Source of the DNA: Pseudomonas parafulva
GTDB taxonomy: Bacteria > Pseudomonadota > Gammaproteobacteria > Pseudomonadales > Pseudomonadaceae
NCBI RefSeq assembly: GCF_002021815.1
Contig: NZ_CP019952.1
Location: 3,255,001 to 3,319,000 of the forward strand
Direction of reading: 5' to 3'
Length of the DNA: 64,000 nt
In this document: piece after piece, positions 3,214 to 49,781 of the stretch
How positions within the stretch are numbered: the stretch's first letter is position 1
Layout of the letters: each line of letters opens with the position of its first letter
Program-made: the position numbers and the translations under genes
The notes under the pieces: generated by a model
What the model was told of the DNA's origin: nothing
The model's database searches: none
The model's input: the letters and a program-made list of their open reading frames with translations, nothing else

Positions 3214-4779
3214 TCAGCGATTGAAGCGCTCGGCCAGGCCATAGAGGTAGTCGGCCATGCGTTCGAGGTCTTGGCTGATCTGCGCGCCTTGCCGTGCCTG
3301 CCCGGCGCTTTGATCGCACAACTGGGCGATGCGCGTGATCTGCTGGTTGATGTCTTCAGCCACATGGCTTTGCTGTTCGGAAGCAGCAGCCATCTGTTGG
3401 CTCATGCCTGTGATCCTGCTGACCGCCTGGGCGATGCCGACCAGCGCGTTCTGCACGGCCTCAACGCTTTGCCTGCTGTCGCGCGCGATGCGCTCGCCGT
3501 GGCCGGCGGAACTCACTGCCCGCTCGGTGCCCGCGCGCAGGGTGGCGATGATCTGATGAATTTCCTCGGTCGAGGTGCGGGTGCGCTGTGCCAGCGAACG
3601 GACCTCGTCGGCCACCACGGCAAACCCCCGCCCCTGCTCCCCCGCACGGGCCGCTTCGATGGCAGCGTTAAGTGCCAGTAGGTTGGTCTGCTCGGCAATG
3701 GCTGTGATCACATCGACCACGCTGCCGATGGACTGGGTCTGCTGGGCGAGTGCGTTGACGGCCTGGCCAATATCACTGACCGCATCACTCATGCTGTCCA
3801 TGGCATGGAGGCTCTGCTGGGCCAGCTCACTGCCGCGCTGAGCCAATTGATCGGCATCGCCGGCAGCATGGGCCGTGCTCTGGACGTTCTGCGTGACCTG
3901 CTGGATGGTTGCCGCCATCTCGGCGATGGCAGTGGCGGACTGATCCGTTTCACTGCGTTGACGGTCAAGCATCGAGGCCTGTGTGTCTGACAGTTTGGAG
4001 GATTGTGAAGCCCGGTCCTTTACCCCCACGCCTGCATCCTCAAGCCGGGTCAAGGCGGTTTGCAAGCGCGCTTCTTCACTCAGCATGGCCAGATCCATTT
4101 GCCCATGCAGCCCGGGGCTGGCGCTATAGGTCAGCGCCACCAGCGGGCTGGTGAAGGCCCTGGGGTGTGCAGCCAACGTGCGCTGTATGGCTTGGCTGTG
4201 CTGGCGCTCGATGACGTACCAGGCCAGCAGCAGGCTGGTCATCAATACCGCCAGTGCAGCGTAGGCCGGCAGGCTGGCGTAGGCGAACGCCGATAGCGCT
4301 CCGGCGGCGGCAAGCGGCCAGCCAGTCCCCAGGCATTGGCCCACACGTGCCACCCACGGCAACGGCGCACGGTCACTGCGCAGGCGGGCATACAGGCGCT
4401 CGGCACGGGCGATCTGCGCGCGGCTGGGCACTGAACGTACTGACTCGTAACCACTGACGCGGCCTTGTTCGTAGATGGGCGTGACGTAGGCACTGACCCA
4501 GTAATAGTCACCGTTCTTTGCTCGGTTTTTGACGATACCCATCCAGGGCTTGCCCTGCTTGATGGTGTCCCACATATGGCCAAACACCGCGGCGGGCATG
4601 TCCGGATGACGTACCAAATTGTGGGGCTGACCTACCAGTTCGTCATAAGTGAAGCCACTGATGGCCACGAACGCTTCGTTGCAGTAGGTGATTCGGCTAT
4701 CGAGATCGGTGGTCGAGATCAGGCGCTGGTCACCGGGGAAGGTTCTTTCATACTCGGTGACGGGCAAGTTCGTGCGCAT
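3214..4779 (-). CDS. aer: Aer-type PAS methyl-accepting aerotaxis receptor
   Basis: This 521-residue protein begins [16 protein letters not shown] and continues into a PAS domain (about residues 15-120) with the Aer signature [32 protein letters not shown], which binds FAD in E. coli Aer. A double hydrophobic segment at about 155-195 ([15 protein letters not shown]..., [15 protein letters not shown]) anchors it in the inner membrane without a large periplasmic domain. The C-terminal half is a long coiled coil with the conserved signalling hairpin [38 protein letters not shown]. Such receptors sense redox or oxygen state and signal through CheW/CheA. P. putida has several Aer paralogues; I recall one beside the lapE/DTW genes. 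No clear sigma-28 promoter was seen upstream. Confidence 0.9.
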
Positions 4780-5080
4780 CTTCGGCGATCCTTGCAGGAT
4801 GAAAATGGGAGAAAAGTAGGCGCAAGGTTGATATGTAGCAGAGCGCTTTCAAATAGGAGGCCGTAGCCGCAGGAAATTATTGCATCCTGACGAAATACAT
4901 CAACGCAATGTTTACGCCAGTGTCGCAGCTGGCTGAAACAGGTCGCAAAGCGCGGGGATGAGTGGGTGAAAGGGGGATATTACGGAGGGAGAAGCAGGGC
5001 TCGATCAGTGCTGCCGAAAGCCGTTATGAACAACCAGAGCCCTAGAGCGGGTGCGCCAAGGAACAAAAACGCCTGATTAG
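4780..5080. other. Intergenic region between aer and the PA1414-like gene
   Basis: No gene can be supported in these roughly 300 nt. It should carry the aer promoter (minus strand) and lies downstream of the PA1414-like terminator. A 61-codon minus-strand frame at 4980-5165 overlaps that terminator and the PA1414-like gene in another frame and is not credible. Confidence 0.5.
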
Positions 5081-5120
5081 AACAAAGAAGCCGCTCCGCC
5101 CCGAAAGGTAGAGCGGCCTT
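5081..5120 (-). terminator. Rho-independent terminator of the PA1414-like gene
   Basis: On the minus strand the arms GCCGCTC (5117-5111) and GAGCGGC (5096-5090) flank a 14-nt loop and are followed by TTCTTTGTT. It lies 11 nt past the stop of the 42-codon gene, supporting a short dedicated transcript. Confidence 0.7.
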
Positions 5121-5127
5121 CGCTCGC

Positions 5128-5256
5128 TCAGCGGCGGCGTGGCTGACGGGGGCGCTGCTTTTCATCAGTCGGGATGGGCACCGGCTGCAAGGGCGGCGGA
5201 ATCAAACCCAAGGCAACCCCGAGGTCGTGGAGCCAGTTGTACAGTGCTTTATTCAT
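5128..5256 (-). CDS. PA1414-family small protein (42 residues)
   Basis: This is a 42-codon gene starting at ATG 5256. Its product begins MNKALYNWLHDLGVALGLIP, continues with a Pro-rich PPLQPVPIPTDE segment and ends in a basic tail (QRPRQPRRR). The start has a strong ribosome-binding sequence (AAAGGGGGC, then ATT, then ATG). The sequence matches the small PA1414-type proteins of Pseudomonas, of unknown function. In P. aeruginosa, as I recall, the PA1414 transcript is induced by Anr at low oxygen and its leader gives rise to the sRNA SicX. Here an Anr-like box lies about 115 nt upstream and a terminator immediately follows, so the same arrangement seems present. Protein function is not inferable. 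Confidence 0.8.
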   Translation of the reverse strand: MNKALYNWLHDLGVALGLIPPPLQPVPIPTDEKQRPRQPRRR

Positions 5257-5345
5257 AATGCCCCCTTTACGGGTAAGCCTAACGGCGAATCAGTTTGGCG
5301 CTGCCTTATACAGATCATAGCCGCATGTATGGGCTGACGCCTACG
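5257..5345 (-). ncRNA. Possible SicX-like leader RNA of the PA1414-like gene
   Basis: The roughly 90-nt minus-strand leader between the Anr-like box and the 42-codon gene is where the SicX sRNA would be encoded, judging from the P. aeruginosa arrangement as I recall it. I see no sequence feature that proves an RNA; the call rests on position, a promoter-like site upstream and a terminator downstream of the gene. The 5' end is uncertain by at least 10 nt. Confidence 0.35.
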
Positions 5346-5370
5346 TCTGATCTTACAGATGGGGGTGATT

Positions 5371-5384
5371 GTGACGCCGATCAA
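5371..5384 (-). promoter_or_regulatory. Anr/Fnr-like binding site
   Basis: The minus strand reads TTGATCGGCGTCAC, which matches the Pseudomonas Anr consensus TTGAT-N4-GTCAA at 9 of 10 defined positions. Anr is the oxygen-sensing Fnr homologue that activates from about -41.5. That would place the transcript start near 5336, about 80 nt before the 42-codon gene. A TAAGAT hexamer lies at 5355-5350, slightly closer to the box than ideal. Confidence 0.6.
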
Positions 5385-5446
5385 GCCGCTTGGGGGATTT
5401 CCTGGCACCGCCAATCGTTTCCCTATGTTACTGCTAGGTTCTGGCC

Positions 5447-6373
5447 TTACCCGACCCATTTGCGCAGTTGCTGCCGTACCCAGGGTTCGGCACTCACCAG
5501 AACCACGCCCACGAGCACCAGCACAGCGCCAAGCACGAAGTTCACGGTCAGCGGTTCGCCCAGGATCAACACCCCGAAGGTGACGCCGAACAGGGGCGTG
5601 ATGAATGAAAACACAGCCAGGTTCGATGCCAGGTACTTGCGCAGCAGCCAGAACCAGGTCAGGTAACTGATGAACGAGACGATTACGCCCTGGAACAACA
5701 CGCTCCCAATCGCCAGCGGCGTCATGACCACATCGCCGGCCTGCCCCGTGATCAGCCCAATAAGCAGTAAGCCGACAAAACCTACCGCTAGCTGATAGAA
5801 CAGGGTAAGGGTTGCCGGTGCCTCGGAAAGCCGCGACCCCCTGACCACGACCGTGGTCGCGCCCCATGCCAAGCCGGCGAGTACCCCAAAGGCATCCCCC
5901 AGCAAGGTGCGCCCGTCCATCTCGGCCCATGAGGTCCCACCCACAAAGGCCAGTGCAATGCCCGCGAACGCCAGCAGTATGCCTAGCCATTGCAACAGTC
6001 TCAGCCGTTCGCTGGGCAGCATGAAATGAAGGCCAAGGGCGGTGAAGATGGGCGCTGTGTACAAGAACACCGACATGTGAGCGGCCGTGGTCAGCTTGAG
6101 TCCTTCGGCGATGAACAGAAACTCGAGTCCGAACAATCCGCCCGCCAACACACCTGCTCGCCAAGTCCCCCCTACCTGTTTCCAGTCGCCGCGCCACAGT
6201 ACCATCAGCCCGACCAGCACCGCAGCGATGCAGTTGCGCAGGGTTGCCTGCATCACTGGGGCAATGTCCACGGCGGCCGTTTTGATCAGCACCTGCTGGC
6301 TGCCCCAGATCAGGCAAAGCACCACCATGACCTGAAACGCAAAGGCATCGGGGTTCTTGCGGGCCACGCTCAT
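5447..6373 (-). CDS. EamA/DMT-superfamily permease
   Basis: This 308-residue protein has about ten predicted membrane helices in two EamA repeats: the first runs from MVVLCLIWGSQQVLIKTAAVDI to LAFAGIALAFVGG, the second from GDAFGVLAGLAWGATTVVVRG to LGAVLVLVGVVLV. EamA carriers typically export metabolites or amino acids; the substrate cannot be read from the sequence. ATG 6373 is chosen because it opens just before the first helix. A larger overlapping frame on the same strand (5253-6548) is a shadow. The next gene is on the same strand about 95 nt upstream, without signs of an operon. Confidence 0.85.
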   Translation of the reverse strand: MSVARKNPDAFAFQVMVVLCLIWGSQQVLIKTAAVDIAPVMQATLRNCIAAVLVGLMVLWRGDWKQVGGTWRAGVLAGGLFGLEFLFIAEGLKLTTAAHMSVFLYTAPIFTALGLHFMLPSERLRLLQWLGILLAFAGIALAFVGGTSWAEMDGRTLLGDAFGVLAGLAWGATTVVVRGSRLSEAPATLTLFYQLAVGFVGLLLIGLITGQAGDVVMTPLAIGSVLFQGVIVSFISYLTWFWLLRKYLASNLAVFSFITPLFGVTFGVLILGEPLTVNFVLGAVLVLVGVVLVSAEPWVRQQLRKWVG

Positions 6374-6468
6374 CGGCGGACCTCGAGATGGTGCAAAGGC
6401 ATGCGCAGTGATTCACCTGAAAAAAAAGACACGGGATTATCAATTCACGCATGCCTCGCTGGCCAGCT

Positions 6469-6876
6469 TTAAATGGCACCACCGGCAATCTGCGCCTTGG
6501 ACGAGACGTGTTCAAAGGTGCTTTCATCCAGCGCATCATCCTGATCATCCAGCACTTGCCGCGGGTGTTCGAAGCCTGGAATGCTGCTGTCGATCAGGCT
6601 CATCAGGCGCGACCCTCGCTCGGTCAGCACGAAGTTCTCGCCGTTTCCACCCTCCTCTTCCGGGCGGCTTTGAATATAGCCTCGCTCCAGAAGCAGCTTC
6701 TCGTATTCGCAGGCCTGGCTTTTGAGGCGATCCAGGTCACCGACGGGTTCACCCTTGGCCGCCAGGTCAGCGGCGTGCGCTTCGGCATAAGGGCGGGGCG
6801 TGAAATTCTGCCCACTGCCGTTCTGCACTTCATGCAACAAGCGTTCGATCAGGTCCCAGTTGTAGATGGTACGCAT
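6469..6876 (-). CDS. Small winged-helix-like protein, possible transcriptional regulator (DUF2513-like)
   Basis: The 135-residue product starts at ATG 6876, preceded by a strong AGGAGG; an upstream extension to 7005 lacks support. It opens MRTIYNWDLIERLLHEVQN, then has a long helical linker (PVGDLDRLKSQACEYEKLLLERGYIQ) and FVLTERGSRLMSLI, which resembles the wing and recognition region of winged-helix proteins of the DUF2513 type. The C-terminal 35 residues are acidic and probably disordered (VLDDQDDALDESTFEHV). The regulator role is a guess from fold-like pattern. The divergent neighbour encodes a small periplasmic protein 200 nt away. Confidence 0.6.
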   Translation of the reverse strand: MRTIYNWDLIERLLHEVQNGSGQNFTPRPYAEAHAADLAAKGEPVGDLDRLKSQACEYEKLLLERGYIQSRPEEEGGNGENFVLTERGSRLMSLIDSSIPGFEHPRQVLDDQDDALDESTFEHVSSKAQIAGGAI

Positions 6877-20502: not shown

Positions 20503-23268
20503 TTACTCTTGCGGGGCCTCTTCGGCGCCCGCCGCATCTTGCTCGTCAGGAGCCTGGGCCTCCACGCCCTCCTCGTCCAGCTCGATGAGCGCATCGAGCT
20601 CTTCCTCGGACGGCTCCTGAATACGCTCAAGGCCCACCAGCGTCTCGTCGGAGGCCAGCTTGATCAGCGTCACGCCCTGGGTGTTCCGGCTCAGGCTGGA
20701 CACCTCGCCGACCCGGGTACGCACCAATGTGCCTTGATCGGAAATCAGCATGATTTCTTCACCTTCCTGCACCTGGATGGCGCCGATCAGCAAACCGTTG
20801 CGCCCCTTGGTACCCATGGCGATCACGCCCTGGCCGCCACGGCCGCGACGGGGGAACTTGGACAGCGGGGTACGCTTGCCATAGCCACGCTCGGACGCGG
20901 TGAGGATCTGCGCGCCGGACTCCGGGATCAGCATCGAAATGATCTGCTGGCCCTTGCCTAGCTTCATGCCGCGCACGCCACGGGCGGTACGGCCCATTTC
21001 GCGCACCACGCTCTCGGCAAAGCGGATGACCTTGCCGGCGTCGGAGAACATCATGACTTCCTTGGCGCCATCGGTGATGGCCGCCGCGATCAGGGTGTCG
21101 CCTTCCTTGAGCTTCAGGGCGATCAGGCCGTTGGAGCGAGGACGGGCGAACTGGACCAGCGGCGTCTTCTTGACGGTGCCGGAGGCGGTGGCCATGAAGA
21201 TGTAAGCGCCGGTAGGCTCTGCCGCCCACTCGGGGGTGTCGCCTTCTTCCTCGTCCACTTCCTCCACTTCGACCAGCTCGCCTTCGAGCACGGTGTCATC
21301 GGCGTCTTCGAGTTCTTCTTCGAGGTCGGCGTTCTGCTGCAAGGCTTCAAGATCGACCTGCAACATGGCGGTGATGCGCTCACCCTCTTCCAGCGGCAGC
21401 AGGTTGACCAGCGGGCGACCACGGGCAGCGCGGGACGCCTCGGGGATTTCGTAGGTCTTCTTCCAGTACACCTTGCCCTTGCTGGAGAACAGCAGCAGGG
21501 TAGCGTGGCTGTTGGCGACCAACAGGTGCTCGATGTAGTCCTCGTCCTTCACGCCGGTGGCCGACTTGCCCTTGCCGCCACGGCGCTGGGCCTGGTAGGC
21601 GGACAATGGCTGGGTCTTGGCATACCCGCCATGGGAAATGGTCACCACACGCTCTTCTTCCGGGATCATGTCGCCGTAGTTGAGGTCGTGGCTGGCATTG
21701 AGGATTTCGGTGCGACGGGCATCGCCGTACTCGGCGCGAATCGCTTCGAGCTCTTCGCGGATGACTTCCATCAGGCGCTCGGCGCTGTTGAGAATGCGGA
21801 TCAGCTCACCGATCTGCTCCAGGATTTCCTGGTACTCGGCCAGCAGCTTCTCGTGCTCCAGGCCAGTCAGGCGGTGCAGACGCAGGTCAAGGATGGCCTG
21901 GGCCTGTTCTGGCGAGAGGTAGTACTTGCCGTCGCGCAGGCCATACTGTTCAGGCAGGTCGGCCGGGCGGCACGACTCGGCGCCGGCACGTTCGACCATG
22001 ACCTGCACGGCACTCGATTCCCAGGCGGTGGACACCAGGGCTTCCTTGGCCTCGGACGGCGTGGGCGAGGCTTTGATCATCGCGATGACCGGGTCGATGT
22101 TGGACAGCGCAACCGCCTGGCCTTCAAGGATGTGGCCGCGCTCACGCGCCTTGCGCAGTTCGAACACGGTGCGCCGGGTAACCACTTCGCGGCGGTGGCG
22201 CACGAAGGCTTCGAGCAGGTCCTTGAGGTTGAGCAGCCGCGGACGGCCATCGACCAGGGCGACGACGTTGATGCCGAACACGCTCTGCAGCTGGGTCTGC
22301 GAGTACAGGTTGTTGAGCACCACCTCCGGCACCTCGCCGCGACGCAGCTCGATGACGATGCGCATGCCGTCCTTGTCGGACTCGTCGCGCAGCTCGGTGA
22401 TGCCCTCGATCTTCTTCTCTTTGACCAGTTCGGCGATCTTCTCGATCAGACGCGCCTTGTTCAACTGGTACGGCAGCTCGGTCACGACGATCTGCTGGCG
22501 ACCGCCCACCTTGTCGATGTCTTCGATCTGGGAGCGGGCACGCATGTAGATGCGGCCACGGCCGGTGCGGTAGGCCTCGATGATGCCCTGGCGGCCGTTG
22601 ATCAGGCCGGCGGTAGGGAAGTCAGGACCGGGGATGTGCTGCATCAGCTCATCGATGGTGACGTCCGGGTTATCGATCAGCGCCAGGCAGCCATCGATGA
22701 CTTCGCCCAGGTTGTGCGGCGGAATGTTGGTGGCCATGCCCACGGCGATGCCGCTGGAACCGTTGACCAGCAGGTTGGGAATACGCGTCGGCATGACCGC
22801 CGGGATCTGCTCGGTGCCGTCGTAGTTGGGCACCCAGTCGACGGTTTCCTTGTGCAGGTCGGCCAGCAGCTCATGCGCCAGCTTGGCCATGCGCACTTCG
22901 GTGTATCGCATGGCCGCGGCGTTGTCGCCGTCCACCGAACCGAAGTTGCCCTGGCCGTCGACCAGCAGGTAGCGCAGCGAGAAGGGCTGAGCCATACGCA
23001 CGATGGTGTCGTAGACCGCAGTGTCGCCGTGCGGGTGGTACTTACCGATCACGTCACCGACCACACGGGCGGATTTCTTGTACGGCTTGTTCCAGTCGTT
23101 GCCCAGTTCGCTCATCGCAAAGAGAACGCGGCGATGCACGGGCTTCAAGCCGTCACGCGCATCGGGCAGCGCTCGCCCGACAATCACGCTCATCGCGTAG
23201 TCGAGGTAAGACTGTCTCAGTTCGTCTTCGATATTGACCGGGAGGATTTCTTTGGCCAGTTCGCCCAT
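20503..23268 (-). CDS. gyrA: DNA gyrase subunit A
   Basis: This 921-residue subunit of the type II topoisomerase introduces negative supercoils with GyrB. The winged-helix/tower core contains [22 protein letters not shown] and the catalytic tyrosine in [10 protein letters not shown]. The quinolone-determining segment is [17 protein letters not shown], with Thr and Asp at the positions of P. aeruginosa Thr83 and Asp87. The C-terminal beta-pinwheel includes the GyrA box QRRGGKGK and an acidic insert ([29 protein letters not shown]). The tail is also acidic. ATG 23268 follows AAGGAATC. The gene is separated from mtnA by about 390 nt. Confidence 0.98.
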
Positions 23269-30611: not shown

Positions 30612-30917
30612 GGAGTCCCTGTCACAGAGCAGATAAGGCGCGAATCAACCCAGACAAAGCACAGCGTAGGCCATCTGCCATTAACGCGATGGAAATTTAG
30701 GGGCCTGATTTCAGTCAATGATGGCCGCCACGCCTGCTGCCTTGTGGGCGCGGTGTCTGGCTCGCCGGTTTGAGCGTGGCGCAGTGCTGGACATATTGTC
30801 GCAGACACCGCATGGACCACGTCAATTAAGTCATGACAGCCTAGCTTTTGATCAACTCAAGGTGCGCAACGCGGGGGCCGAGCTTGATCACCGCGCACGC
30901 CGCAGGCCAACCCCTTG
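30612..30917. other. Intergenic region upstream of the GGDEF-EAL gene
   Basis: This 306-nt region has no credible gene. It lies downstream of the AtuA-like unit and holds the promoter of the GGDEF-EAL gene. Features noticed: GTCAATTAAGTCATGAC at 30821-30836, and two TTGATCA palindromic words at about 30847 and 30883. No rho-independent terminator with a U tract is evident after the AtuA-like genes. Confidence 0.4.
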
Positions 30918-48761: not shown

Positions 48762-49781
48762 TTACCGCTTGAGCAACAGCATGAAGAACACCCCGCCCAG
48801 CGCTGCGGTAGCAATGCCGATCGGCAGGTCTTGCGGTGCGATGAGGGTGCGGGCGGCCACATCCACCCAGACCAGAAACACCCCACCCAGCAGCGCACTG
48901 ACTGGCATCAACCGCCGATTGTCCGCCCCCACCAGCAGGCGCGCTACATGGGGCACCATAAGGCCCACGAAACCGATGGCGCCCGACAGCGAAACCAGCA
49001 CCCCGGTCAACAAAGAGGTGCAGATGAACACCTCAAGCCGCAGGCGCCGGCCACAGAAGCCCAAGCTGATCGCGGTCTGCTCGCCACTCATCAATGCATT
49101 CAGGCCGCGCCCCATCACTTGGAGCGCGCACAGTCCAAACAGCACGCACAGTGCCGGCAACCAGATGACCTCCCAGCGGGCAGCCCCCAGCCCACCCAGC
49201 ATCCAGAACACCACCGAAGCCGCCGCGTGCTGGTCACCGGTATAGAGCAGCAGGTTGACCACGGCCATCAGCACGAAGGACACCGCCACCCCCGCCAACA
49301 GCAAGCGATCGCTTTCCAGGCGTCCGCCGCGGCGCGCCACGCCGATCACCAGCAGCATGCTCCCTGTCGCCCCCACGAACGCAGCCAGCGGCAGGCTGAG
49401 CACACCGACGAAGTCCCCGACGTAAAGCATCACCAGCACTGCGCCCAGCGCAGCGCCGGCGCTGACACCCAGCAAATGTGGGTCTGCCAGTGGGTTTCGG
49501 GTCACGGACTGCAGGGCCGTACCCACCAGGGCAAGCCCTGCCCCGACCAATGCGCCCAACAGTACACGCGGGGCACGGATGAGCCAGATGATGTGCGTCT
49601 GGCTCTTGCTGAGCGCAGGCCCCCAGTCGATGCCCATCTGTTGCGCGACGATCCCGATGACGTGGGTCAAGGGCACCGATGCCGGGCCAAATGCCAGCGA
49701 CGCGACCAAAGACGCCACCAACAGGATGACCAGCACCACGGTCAGCCAGCCATAACACGCTGGGCTGCGCGCCAAGGTCAT
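48762..49781 (-). CDS. btuC: FecCD-family ABC permease, vitamin B12 uptake (BtuC-like)
   Basis: The 339-residue inner-membrane protein has about ten helices and family motifs IRAPRVLLGALVGAGLALVGTALQSVTRNPLADPHLLGVSAGAALGAVL and SLSGAIGFVGLMVPHVARLLVGADNRRLMP. It starts with ATGA overlap on the binding-protein gene and is the last gene of the riboswitch-controlled operon. Sequence alone would also fit siderophore or heme permeases; the assignment to B12 follows from the cobalamin riboswitch. Confidence 0.85.
   Translation of the reverse strand: MTLARSPACYGWLTVVLVILLVASLVASLAFGPASVPLTHVIGIVAQQMGIDWGPALSKSQTHIIWLIRAPRVLLGALVGAGLALVGTALQSVTRNPLADPHLLGVSAGAALGAVLVMLYVGDFVGVLSLPLAAFVGATGSMLLVIGVARRGGRLESDRLLLAGVAVSFVLMAVVNLLLYTGDQHAAASVVFWMLGGLGAARWEVIWLPALCVLFGLCALQVMGRGLNALMSGEQTAISLGFCGRRLRLEVFICTSLLTGVLVSLSGAIGFVGLMVPHVARLLVGADNRRLMPVSALLGGVFLVWVDVAARTLIAPQDLPIGIATAALGGVFFMLLLKR

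What the first reader, a model, noticed from the sequence alone, without database searches (positions are those of the whole stretch)
5081..5384. PA1414-like 42-codon gene with Anr-like box: candidate SicX-type oxygen-responsive RNA locus
A 129-nt gene below the usual annotation cut-off has a strong ribosome-binding site, a dedicated terminator, and a TTGATCGGCGTCAC box upstream that matches the Anr consensus at 9/10 positions. In P. aeruginosa, as I recall, the PA1414 leader yields the Anr-controlled sRNA SicX, which affects chronic versus acute infection behaviour. Here the same layout appears in an environmental P. putida-type genome next to an aerotaxis receptor gene. The leader sequence (about 5257-5345) may encode a related RNA with different targets.
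Basis: partly seen in the sequence, partly recalled or inferred. Interest (0 to 1): 0.75.

Follow-up and report, generated by a model that had tools for sequence, protein, structure and literature searches.

The report
Low-oxygen microprotein gene, not SicX RNA
This is a conserved gene for a 42-residue protein of unknown function, probably switched on by the oxygen regulator Anr; it is the same gene family as P. aeruginosa PA1414, but the SicX regulatory RNA known from that locus does not appear to be present here.

Summary
On the minus strand at 5081-5384 lie an Anr-like box (5371-5384), a strong Shine-Dalgarno, a 42-codon ORF (5128-5256) and a terminator. The product is a PA1414-family protein (NF041729, 78.7 bits, cut-off 28). 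The family matches 299 of 398 Pseudomonadaceae genomes and evolves as a protein (dN/dS 0.035-0.26). In 49 P. putida-type loci the box half-sites and the -10 are nearly invariant while the box spacer varies; the genome encodes Anr.

The SicX reading is not supported. An 18-nt core of the SicX region is exact in 24 of 25 genomes of the P. aeruginosa genus and in 0 of the other 373 searched. A covariance model of that RNA finds nothing in the leader, the leader lacks a comparable hairpin, and UbiU/UbiV-type genes (the known SicX target operon) were not found in the genome.

The comparison also re-reads the P. aeruginosa locus: the 77-aa PA1414 starts 33 codons before the conserved 44-codon ORF. 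SicX thus looks like a lineage-specific leader RNA before a family-wide microprotein gene. The paper that found no homologues elsewhere required over 90% nucleotide identity. The microprotein's function is unknown.

The parts
5128..5256 (-). ORF of the 42-aa PA1414-family microprotein
   Evidence: NF041729 78.7 bits over cut-off 28; 69-86% identity to 13 aligned homologues; dN/dS 0.106 in 49 related loci
5260..5268 (-). Shine-Dalgarno AAAGGGGGC
   Evidence: position; its AGGGGG core has divergence 0.00-0.08 per position in 49 loci
5257..5307 (-). predicted 5' leader (start of transcription inferred about 51 nt before the ATG)
   Evidence: -51..-15 divergence 0.142 against 0.327 at 4-fold sites in 49 loci; no hairpin above shuffles
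5314..5319 (-). predicted -10 element TATGAT
   Evidence: -63..-52 divergence 0.003 in 49 loci; position; no -35 found by the consensus scan
5371..5384 (-). Anr/FNR box TTGATCGGCGTCAC, centre 61 nt from the -10 centre (about -71)
   Evidence: half-sites 0.061, spacer 0.366 divergence in 49 loci; distance
5083..5121 (-). intrinsic terminator stem-loop just after the stop codon
   Evidence: GGCCGC and GCGGCC arms largely conserved in the alignment
5447..6373 (-). upstream EamA transporter gene (neighbour)
   Evidence: PF00892; counts of the same neighbour elsewhere
3214..4779 (-). downstream PAS-MCP (aerotaxis-type receptor) gene (neighbour)
   Evidence: PF08447 and PF00015

Best explanation
The locus is a single-gene transcription unit for a conserved 42-residue microprotein of the PA1414 family. 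When oxygen falls, Anr (an FNR-type activator) binds the box about 71 nt before the start of transcription and activates a promoter that has a good -10 but no recognisable -35. The roughly 225-nt mRNA has a conserved 50-nt leader with a strong Shine-Dalgarno and ends at its own terminator. The product has an amphipathic N-terminal helix (about residues 3-16), a proline-rich LIPPPLQPVPIP segment and an arginine-rich tail. My best guess is that the helix docks on a partner protein or the membrane face and that the protein tunes a low-oxygen process common to Pseudomonadaceae. Shown by sequence: family membership, purifying selection on the protein, conservation of box and -10 in P. putida-type loci, presence of Anr, absence of the SicX-region core, no UbiU/UbiV-type gene found. 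Inferred: transcription, oxygen response, translation. Guessed: the molecular role.
For: NF041729 match at 78.7 bits. 299 of 398 family genomes match, 295 over cut-off, 0 of 14 controls; in an order-wide draw of 194 genomes 8 match, and the only one outside the family is below cut-off. dN/dS 0.106 (49 P. putida-type loci), 0.035 (62 P. fluorescens-type), 0.261 (26 loci picked by a P. aeruginosa-type motif, which may include other genera), with 38, 35 and 38 variable third positions against 24, 14 and 41 at the first two positions together. In the 49 loci each base of TTGAT is 49 of 49, the spacer varies, and the -10 region diverges by 0.003. 42 of the 49 have a 10/10 box, at -127 to -132 except one at -119. 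Anr with C-x2-C-x5-C in the genome, beside frames that I recognise without a scan as HemN- and Apt-like, the neighbours that PMC6588701 describes. AlphaFold2: helix 3-16, mean pLDDT 75.7.
Against: No transcript or protein data were available. Most of the 49 loci were found by DNA likeness to a query that contains the box, which favours loci with a box. The window's own box has one mismatch, and in P. fluorescens-type loci the box is often missing or a degenerate 8/10 form at the same place, so Anr control may not hold family-wide. The leader is more constrained than synonymous sites, so it may do more than carry the Shine-Dalgarno. No solved relative; pTM is 0.35 and the docking role is a guess. 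Only one Crp family model was searched, so other FNR-type regulators could use the box.
Confidence: 0.82

Rival explanations
1. SicX homologue: the leader is released as, or acts as, a trans-acting oxygen-responsive sRNA related by descent to SicX, with different targets.
For: Same gene family and same type of activator box. The leader is more conserved than 4-fold sites, 0.142 against 0.327. Outside the P. aeruginosa genus the covariance model has weak matches (19.2-25.4 bits, E 0.0012-0.039) just upstream of the ORF in six loci, five of genus g12 and one (L127) of the window's own genus.
Against: SicX-region core exact in 24 of 25 P. aeruginosa-genus genomes and 0 of the other 373; six of those have a one-mismatch match, three of them on another contig than the gene. 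None in the window at 3 mismatches. Model: 109.5 bits for a member locus, 84.2 for a second fetch of another member, no match in the leader here. Leader hairpin score mean z -0.62 in 49 P. putida-type loci against 4.46 in 24 P. aeruginosa-genus loci. UbiU/UbiV-type genes not found. Box to -10 spacing is 61 nt here and about 30 in the P. aeruginosa genus (my count on one printed sequence, inferred -10).
Confidence: 0.05
2. Dual-function transcript: the mRNA encodes the microprotein, and its own conserved leader or whole 225-nt body also regulates, in cis (translation of the ORF) or in trans, by a mechanism unrelated to SicX.
For: Leader divergence 0.142 against 0.327 at 4-fold sites; CCC facing GGGGG around the Shine-Dalgarno; leader hairpins with z above 2 in 0.28 of 60 loci of other clades.
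Against: The whole transcript folds no better than shuffles, z +1.60; promoter-proximal elements and translation initiation could account for the leader constraint.
Confidence: 0.25
3. Non-functional small ORF with a chance Anr box.
For: Boxes with at most one mismatch are expected about 3 times per 64 kb.
Against: Family-wide occurrence and low dN/dS; box position and half-sites conserved.
Confidence: 0.02

Closest known systems
PA1414 family protein, NCBIfam NF041729 (the precomputed Pfam label on the hits is PF28105)
   Same: The product matches end to end, 78.7 bits over a cut-off of 28; relatives of 41-47 aa already bear the name.
   Different: Nothing in the product sets it apart; the P. 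putida-type leader and promoter differ from those of the P. aeruginosa genus.
P. aeruginosa PA1414 / sRNA SicX (PMC10247376)
   Same: Same small-protein family behind an Anr box; EamA gene upstream in the P. aeruginosa genus too.
   Different: No SicX-region core, no two-part structured leader, different box-to-promoter spacing, UbiU/UbiV-type genes not found.
Anr regulon genes of Pseudomonas (PMC6588701)
   Same: FNR-type box upstream, Anr present.
   Different: PA1414 is not among the genes in the part of its abstract that I saw, and the paper is not in the listing of papers holding 'PA1414'.

Membership tests
PA1414 protein family (NF041729) | Whole-protein score above the curated cut-off of 28 bits | tested here: met
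   78.7 bits, residues 1-42 on profile 1-43 of 43
PA1414 protein family (NF041729) | EamA gene upstream on the same strand, as in the P. aeruginosa genus | tested here: met
   window, and 40 of 41 rows of P. aeruginosa-genus type (repeat fetches of some genomes; about 3.2 kb away in L116). Not general: 4 of 31 P. putida-type, 27 of 91 P. fluorescens-type and 8 of 50 other rows, many with flanks of only about 1.5 kb
SicX sRNA | Conserved SicX-region sequence upstream of the conserved ORF | tested here: not met
   0 matches in the window at up to 3 mismatches; own genome 0 at up to 1 mismatch; covariance model no match in the leader
SicX sRNA | Structured leader ending in a GC-rich hairpin before the ORF | tested here: not met
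   mean z -0.62 in 49 P. putida-type loci (the window's own -0.6), 4.46 in 24 P. aeruginosa-genus loci; 20 mononucleotide shuffles each
SicX sRNA | Target operon ubiUVT in the genome | tested here: not met
   two peptidase-U32 matches, in frames of 453 and 739 codons; the UbiU-like (335-359) and UbiV-like (310-373) frames of five other genomes in that call have no counterpart; the names UbiU/UbiV are my assignment
SicX sRNA | Short 5' transcript strongly induced at low oxygen | not testable with these tools
   no expression data
Anr regulon | Conserved FNR/Anr box at a fixed distance from a conserved -10 | tested here: met
   for the P. putida-type loci
Anr regulon | Anr encoded in the same genome | tested here: met
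   L314 with cysteine cluster
Anr regulon | Anr-dependent, oxygen-dependent transcription | not testable with these tools
   no expression data

The most novel reading that the evidence does not exclude
The PA1414 locus is a two-product gene. The ancestral product is an Anr-controlled 42-44-aa microprotein kept across much of Pseudomonadaceae; SicX is a later leader RNA of the P. aeruginosa genus. That RNA region is kept in 5 genomes of that genus in which no UbiU/UbiV-type genes were found, so it has a role besides ubiUVT. In P. aeruginosa the conserved 44-aa protein is real and has not been tested as such, because the tested reading frame was annotated 33 codons too long. In the window only the protein arm exists, with a conserved leader that may control it.
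Probability: 0.55. Interest if true: 0.65.

Novelty: new member of a known kind. Interest (0 to 1): 0.42.

Why it matters
According to PMC10247376 (passages), PA1414/SicX has the highest expression of P. aeruginosa genes in human chronic infections and no homologues in other species. The comparison here shows that the gene's protein arm is widespread in the family and under purifying selection, and that the RNA region is shared by 24 of 25 held genomes of the P. aeruginosa genus, including five in which the known target genes were not found. That makes two questions testable: what the low-oxygen microprotein does where there is no SicX (in harmless P. putida-type strains), and what the SicX region does where ubiUVT is missing.

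Tried and rejected
Rfam: one sub-threshold match, COG2908 on the terminator, 16.7 bits against 58.7 needed; rejected. Pfam scan of the product: none, although homologues carry the precomputed label PF28105. PDB: none. A SicX-like RNA in the window: rejected. Pairing of the P. aeruginosa-genus leader with the ubiU 5' region in 19 genomes: duplex energies no better than shuffled targets (z -0.5 to 1.9); inconclusive, since long GC-rich duplexes swamp a short seed. Literature: 'PA1414 family protein' 0 papers; 'SicX' with 'sRNA' and 'Pseudomonas' 3 papers; 'PA1414' 32 papers, of which the one other paper that I opened is a false hit (PMC12300143, PA14_14xxx tags). PMC10433244, P. stutzeri small-protein proteomics (passages): none of my sequence terms in its main text; supplements not open to me. 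PMC8545117 (passages): nothing. PMC10247376: outline, passages and sections 7, 13, 14, 35, not the whole text. PMC6588701: listing and passages.

Full report
What is there. The minus strand at 5081-5384 carries, in order, an Anr-like box TTGATCGGCGTCAC (5371-5384), a -10 element TATGAT (5314-5319), a short leader, a Shine-Dalgarno (5260-5268), a 42-codon ORF (5128-5256) and a stem-loop terminator (5083-5121). The upstream EamA gene ends at 5447, so the box lies in the spacer in front of this ORF. A PAS-MCP receptor gene and a DTW-domain gene follow on the same strand. The genome is close to Pseudomonas fulva: 93.1% over 8,136 bp with NBRC 16637.

The protein. NCBIfam model NF041729, 'PA1414 family protein', matches residues 1 to 42 with 78.7 bits against a cut-off of 28. 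Over 398 Pseudomonadaceae genomes the model matches 299, 295 of them over the cut-off, in 11 of 19 genera, and 0 of 14 control genomes. In an order-wide draw of 194 genomes 8 match; the only one outside the family is a partial hit below the cut-off inside a 678-codon frame. Even weakly scoring matches have an ATG, a Shine-Dalgarno and an arginine-rich end, so some of the 99 genomes without a match may hold diverged copies; I did not check. Selection acts on the protein: dN/dS is 0.106 in 49 P. putida-type loci, 0.035 in 62 P. fluorescens-type loci and 0.261 in 26 loci of P. aeruginosa type (groups drawn by locus number and protein motif, so borders are rough). The variable third codon positions are 38, 35 and 38, against 24, 14 and 41 at the other two together. 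AlphaFold2 gives one N-terminal helix (3-16) and an extended proline-rich part, mean pLDDT 75.7, pTM 0.35.

The promoter. I located the ORF in 256 loci and kept 223 distinct ones with enough upstream DNA, leaving out one chance hit. The best box in the 220 nt before the ATG scores 10/10 in 45, 9/10 in 61, 8/10 in 68, 7/10 in 44 and 6/10 in 5; shuffled upstream regions give 0.09%, 1.35%, 17.5%, 59.6% and 21.4%. The loci are related and were chosen partly for likeness to the window, so this is not a probability. In the 49 P. putida-type loci, most of them found with a DNA query that contains the box, pairwise divergence is 0.061 for the ten half-site positions, 0.366 for the four spacer positions, 0.003 for the -10 region, 0.142 for the leader, 0.327 at 4-fold sites and 0.396 just upstream of the box. 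The contrast between half-sites and spacer is not explained by that choice. Each base of TTGAT is the same in 49 of 49; the window is one of 6 with a non-consensus last base. 42 of the 49 have a 10/10 box. In P. fluorescens-type loci the box is often missing or reduced to an 8/10 form such as AGGATTTGGATCAA at the same place; this counts against family-wide Anr control. With one Crp model (PF00325) the genome shows two genes: one FNR-type with the cysteine cluster, which I take as Anr, and one without it. Other FNR-type genes may exist that this model misses.

The SicX question. In the SicX paper PA1414 is a 234-bp gene with no homologues outside P. aeruginosa; its abundant transcript is the 5' part, Anr-dependent; start-codon and frameshift mutations did not affect its function; and it activates ubiUVT translation (PMC10247376). 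Its homologue search was blastn with more than 90% identity and coverage. The 77-aa form is the 44-aa family protein plus 33 residues, so its start lies 99 nt before the conserved ATG, in the leader. G126 is P. aeruginosa or P. paraeruginosa by its azurin match (97% of my typed query, other genomes of its genus 65-88%) and these proteins (species name inferred). I call its genus (25 genomes held) the P. aeruginosa genus.

In that genus the leader holds an 18-nt stretch, GCGGAGAGTGGGACGCCG, exact in 24 of 25 genomes, present in all 24 aligned leaders, at -88 to -91 from the ATG in the six measured. It has no exact match in the other 373 family genomes; 6 of those have a one-mismatch match, of which 3 (G270, G286, G331) lie on another contig than the gene and 3 I did not place. 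I call it the SicX-region core; that it is the published seed is not shown. The 24 leaders share a two-part structure with 24 pairs, 5 of them with a change on both sides in at least one sequence. A covariance model of it was run on the window and 41 of the 334 loci then held. It scores 109.5 bits on a member locus, 84.2 on a second fetch of another member, and 19.2-25.4 bits (E 0.0012-0.039) just upstream of the ORF in six other loci: five of genus g12 and one, L127, of the window's own genus. So a relative of this RNA may extend a little beyond the P. aeruginosa genus. None of the P. putida-type loci given (L129, L130, L223, L226, L229, L244, L261, L266, L286) matched, nor did the window. 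With filters off, the best score within 4000-6500 is 4.8 bits, and none lies in the leader. Leader hairpins: mean z -0.62 in 49 P. putida-type, 4.46 in 24 P. aeruginosa-genus, 0.69 in 90 P. fluorescens-type and 1.26 in 60 other loci.

The target. The own genome has two peptidase-U32 matches, in frames of 453 and 739 codons; the UbiU- and UbiV-like frames seen in five other genomes of that call are not found (the names are my assignment). In the P. aeruginosa genus 19 of 25 genomes have a UbiU-like and a UbiV-like match and 6 do not. Five of those 6 keep the exact core. So conservation of the SicX region is not explained by ubiUVT alone. This rests on the U32 matches; one of the five is an assembly of about 590 contigs.

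Neighbourhood. EamA lies upstream in 40 of 41 P. aeruginosa-genus rows (with repeat fetches), but in only 4 of 31 P. putida-type, 27 of 91 P. fluorescens-type and 8 of 50 other rows, many of which have short flanks. The neighbourhood supports common origin with the P. aeruginosa locus but is not general.

How it most likely works. Low oxygen lets Anr bind about 71 nt before the start of transcription; a short mRNA is made and translated from a strong Shine-Dalgarno into a small basic protein. The role of the protein is open; a helix that docks on a partner is my guess. In the P. aeruginosa genus the box sits about 30 nt from a different, inferred -10, which places more transcribed DNA in front of the ORF, and that extra leader is the SicX region. 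The promoter change and the RNA may have arisen together (inference).

Verdict. Observation confirmed; PA1414 family and Anr box supported; SicX-type RNA not supported in this genome. The product is a new member of a known, uncharacterised family. The wider point, that the SicX region is the leader of a conserved microprotein gene and is shared by 24 of 25 held genomes of the P. aeruginosa genus, I did not find in print.

Noticed in passing
P. aeruginosa-genus genomes G158, G008, G100, G076, G145: The exact SicX-region core is kept although no UbiU/UbiV-like match was found, so this RNA region probably has another role.
   Followed up: partly
L287/L116 and proteins P0030, P0032: The PA1414 product of P. 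aeruginosa exists in databases as 77 aa and as 44 aa; the 77-aa start lies in the SicX region's leader, 99 nt before the conserved ATG.
   Followed up: yes
alignment A2: The apical part of the SicX-region hairpin holds invariant GGA motifs (GCGGAGAGUGGGAC), which resemble RsmA/CsrA sites (motif recalled).
   Followed up: no
L120, L121, L123, L124, L125 (genus g12) and L127 (the window's genus): Weak covariance hits (19.2-25.4 bits) to the P. aeruginosa-genus leader RNA just upstream of the PA1414-family ORF.
   Followed up: partly
P. fluorescens-type loci among L033-L111: The Anr box is often reduced to one good half-site (ATCAA) at a similar distance from the ATG, while the protein has the lowest dN/dS of the three groups.
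   Followed up: partly
window 20660-20673 (+), 30705-30718 (+), 48898-48911 (-): Further one-mismatch Anr-type boxes.
   Followed up: no
G586 (L270, L271): Two PA1414-like DNA matches near the two ends of one contig; one lacks an in-frame start codon at the usual place.
   Followed up: no
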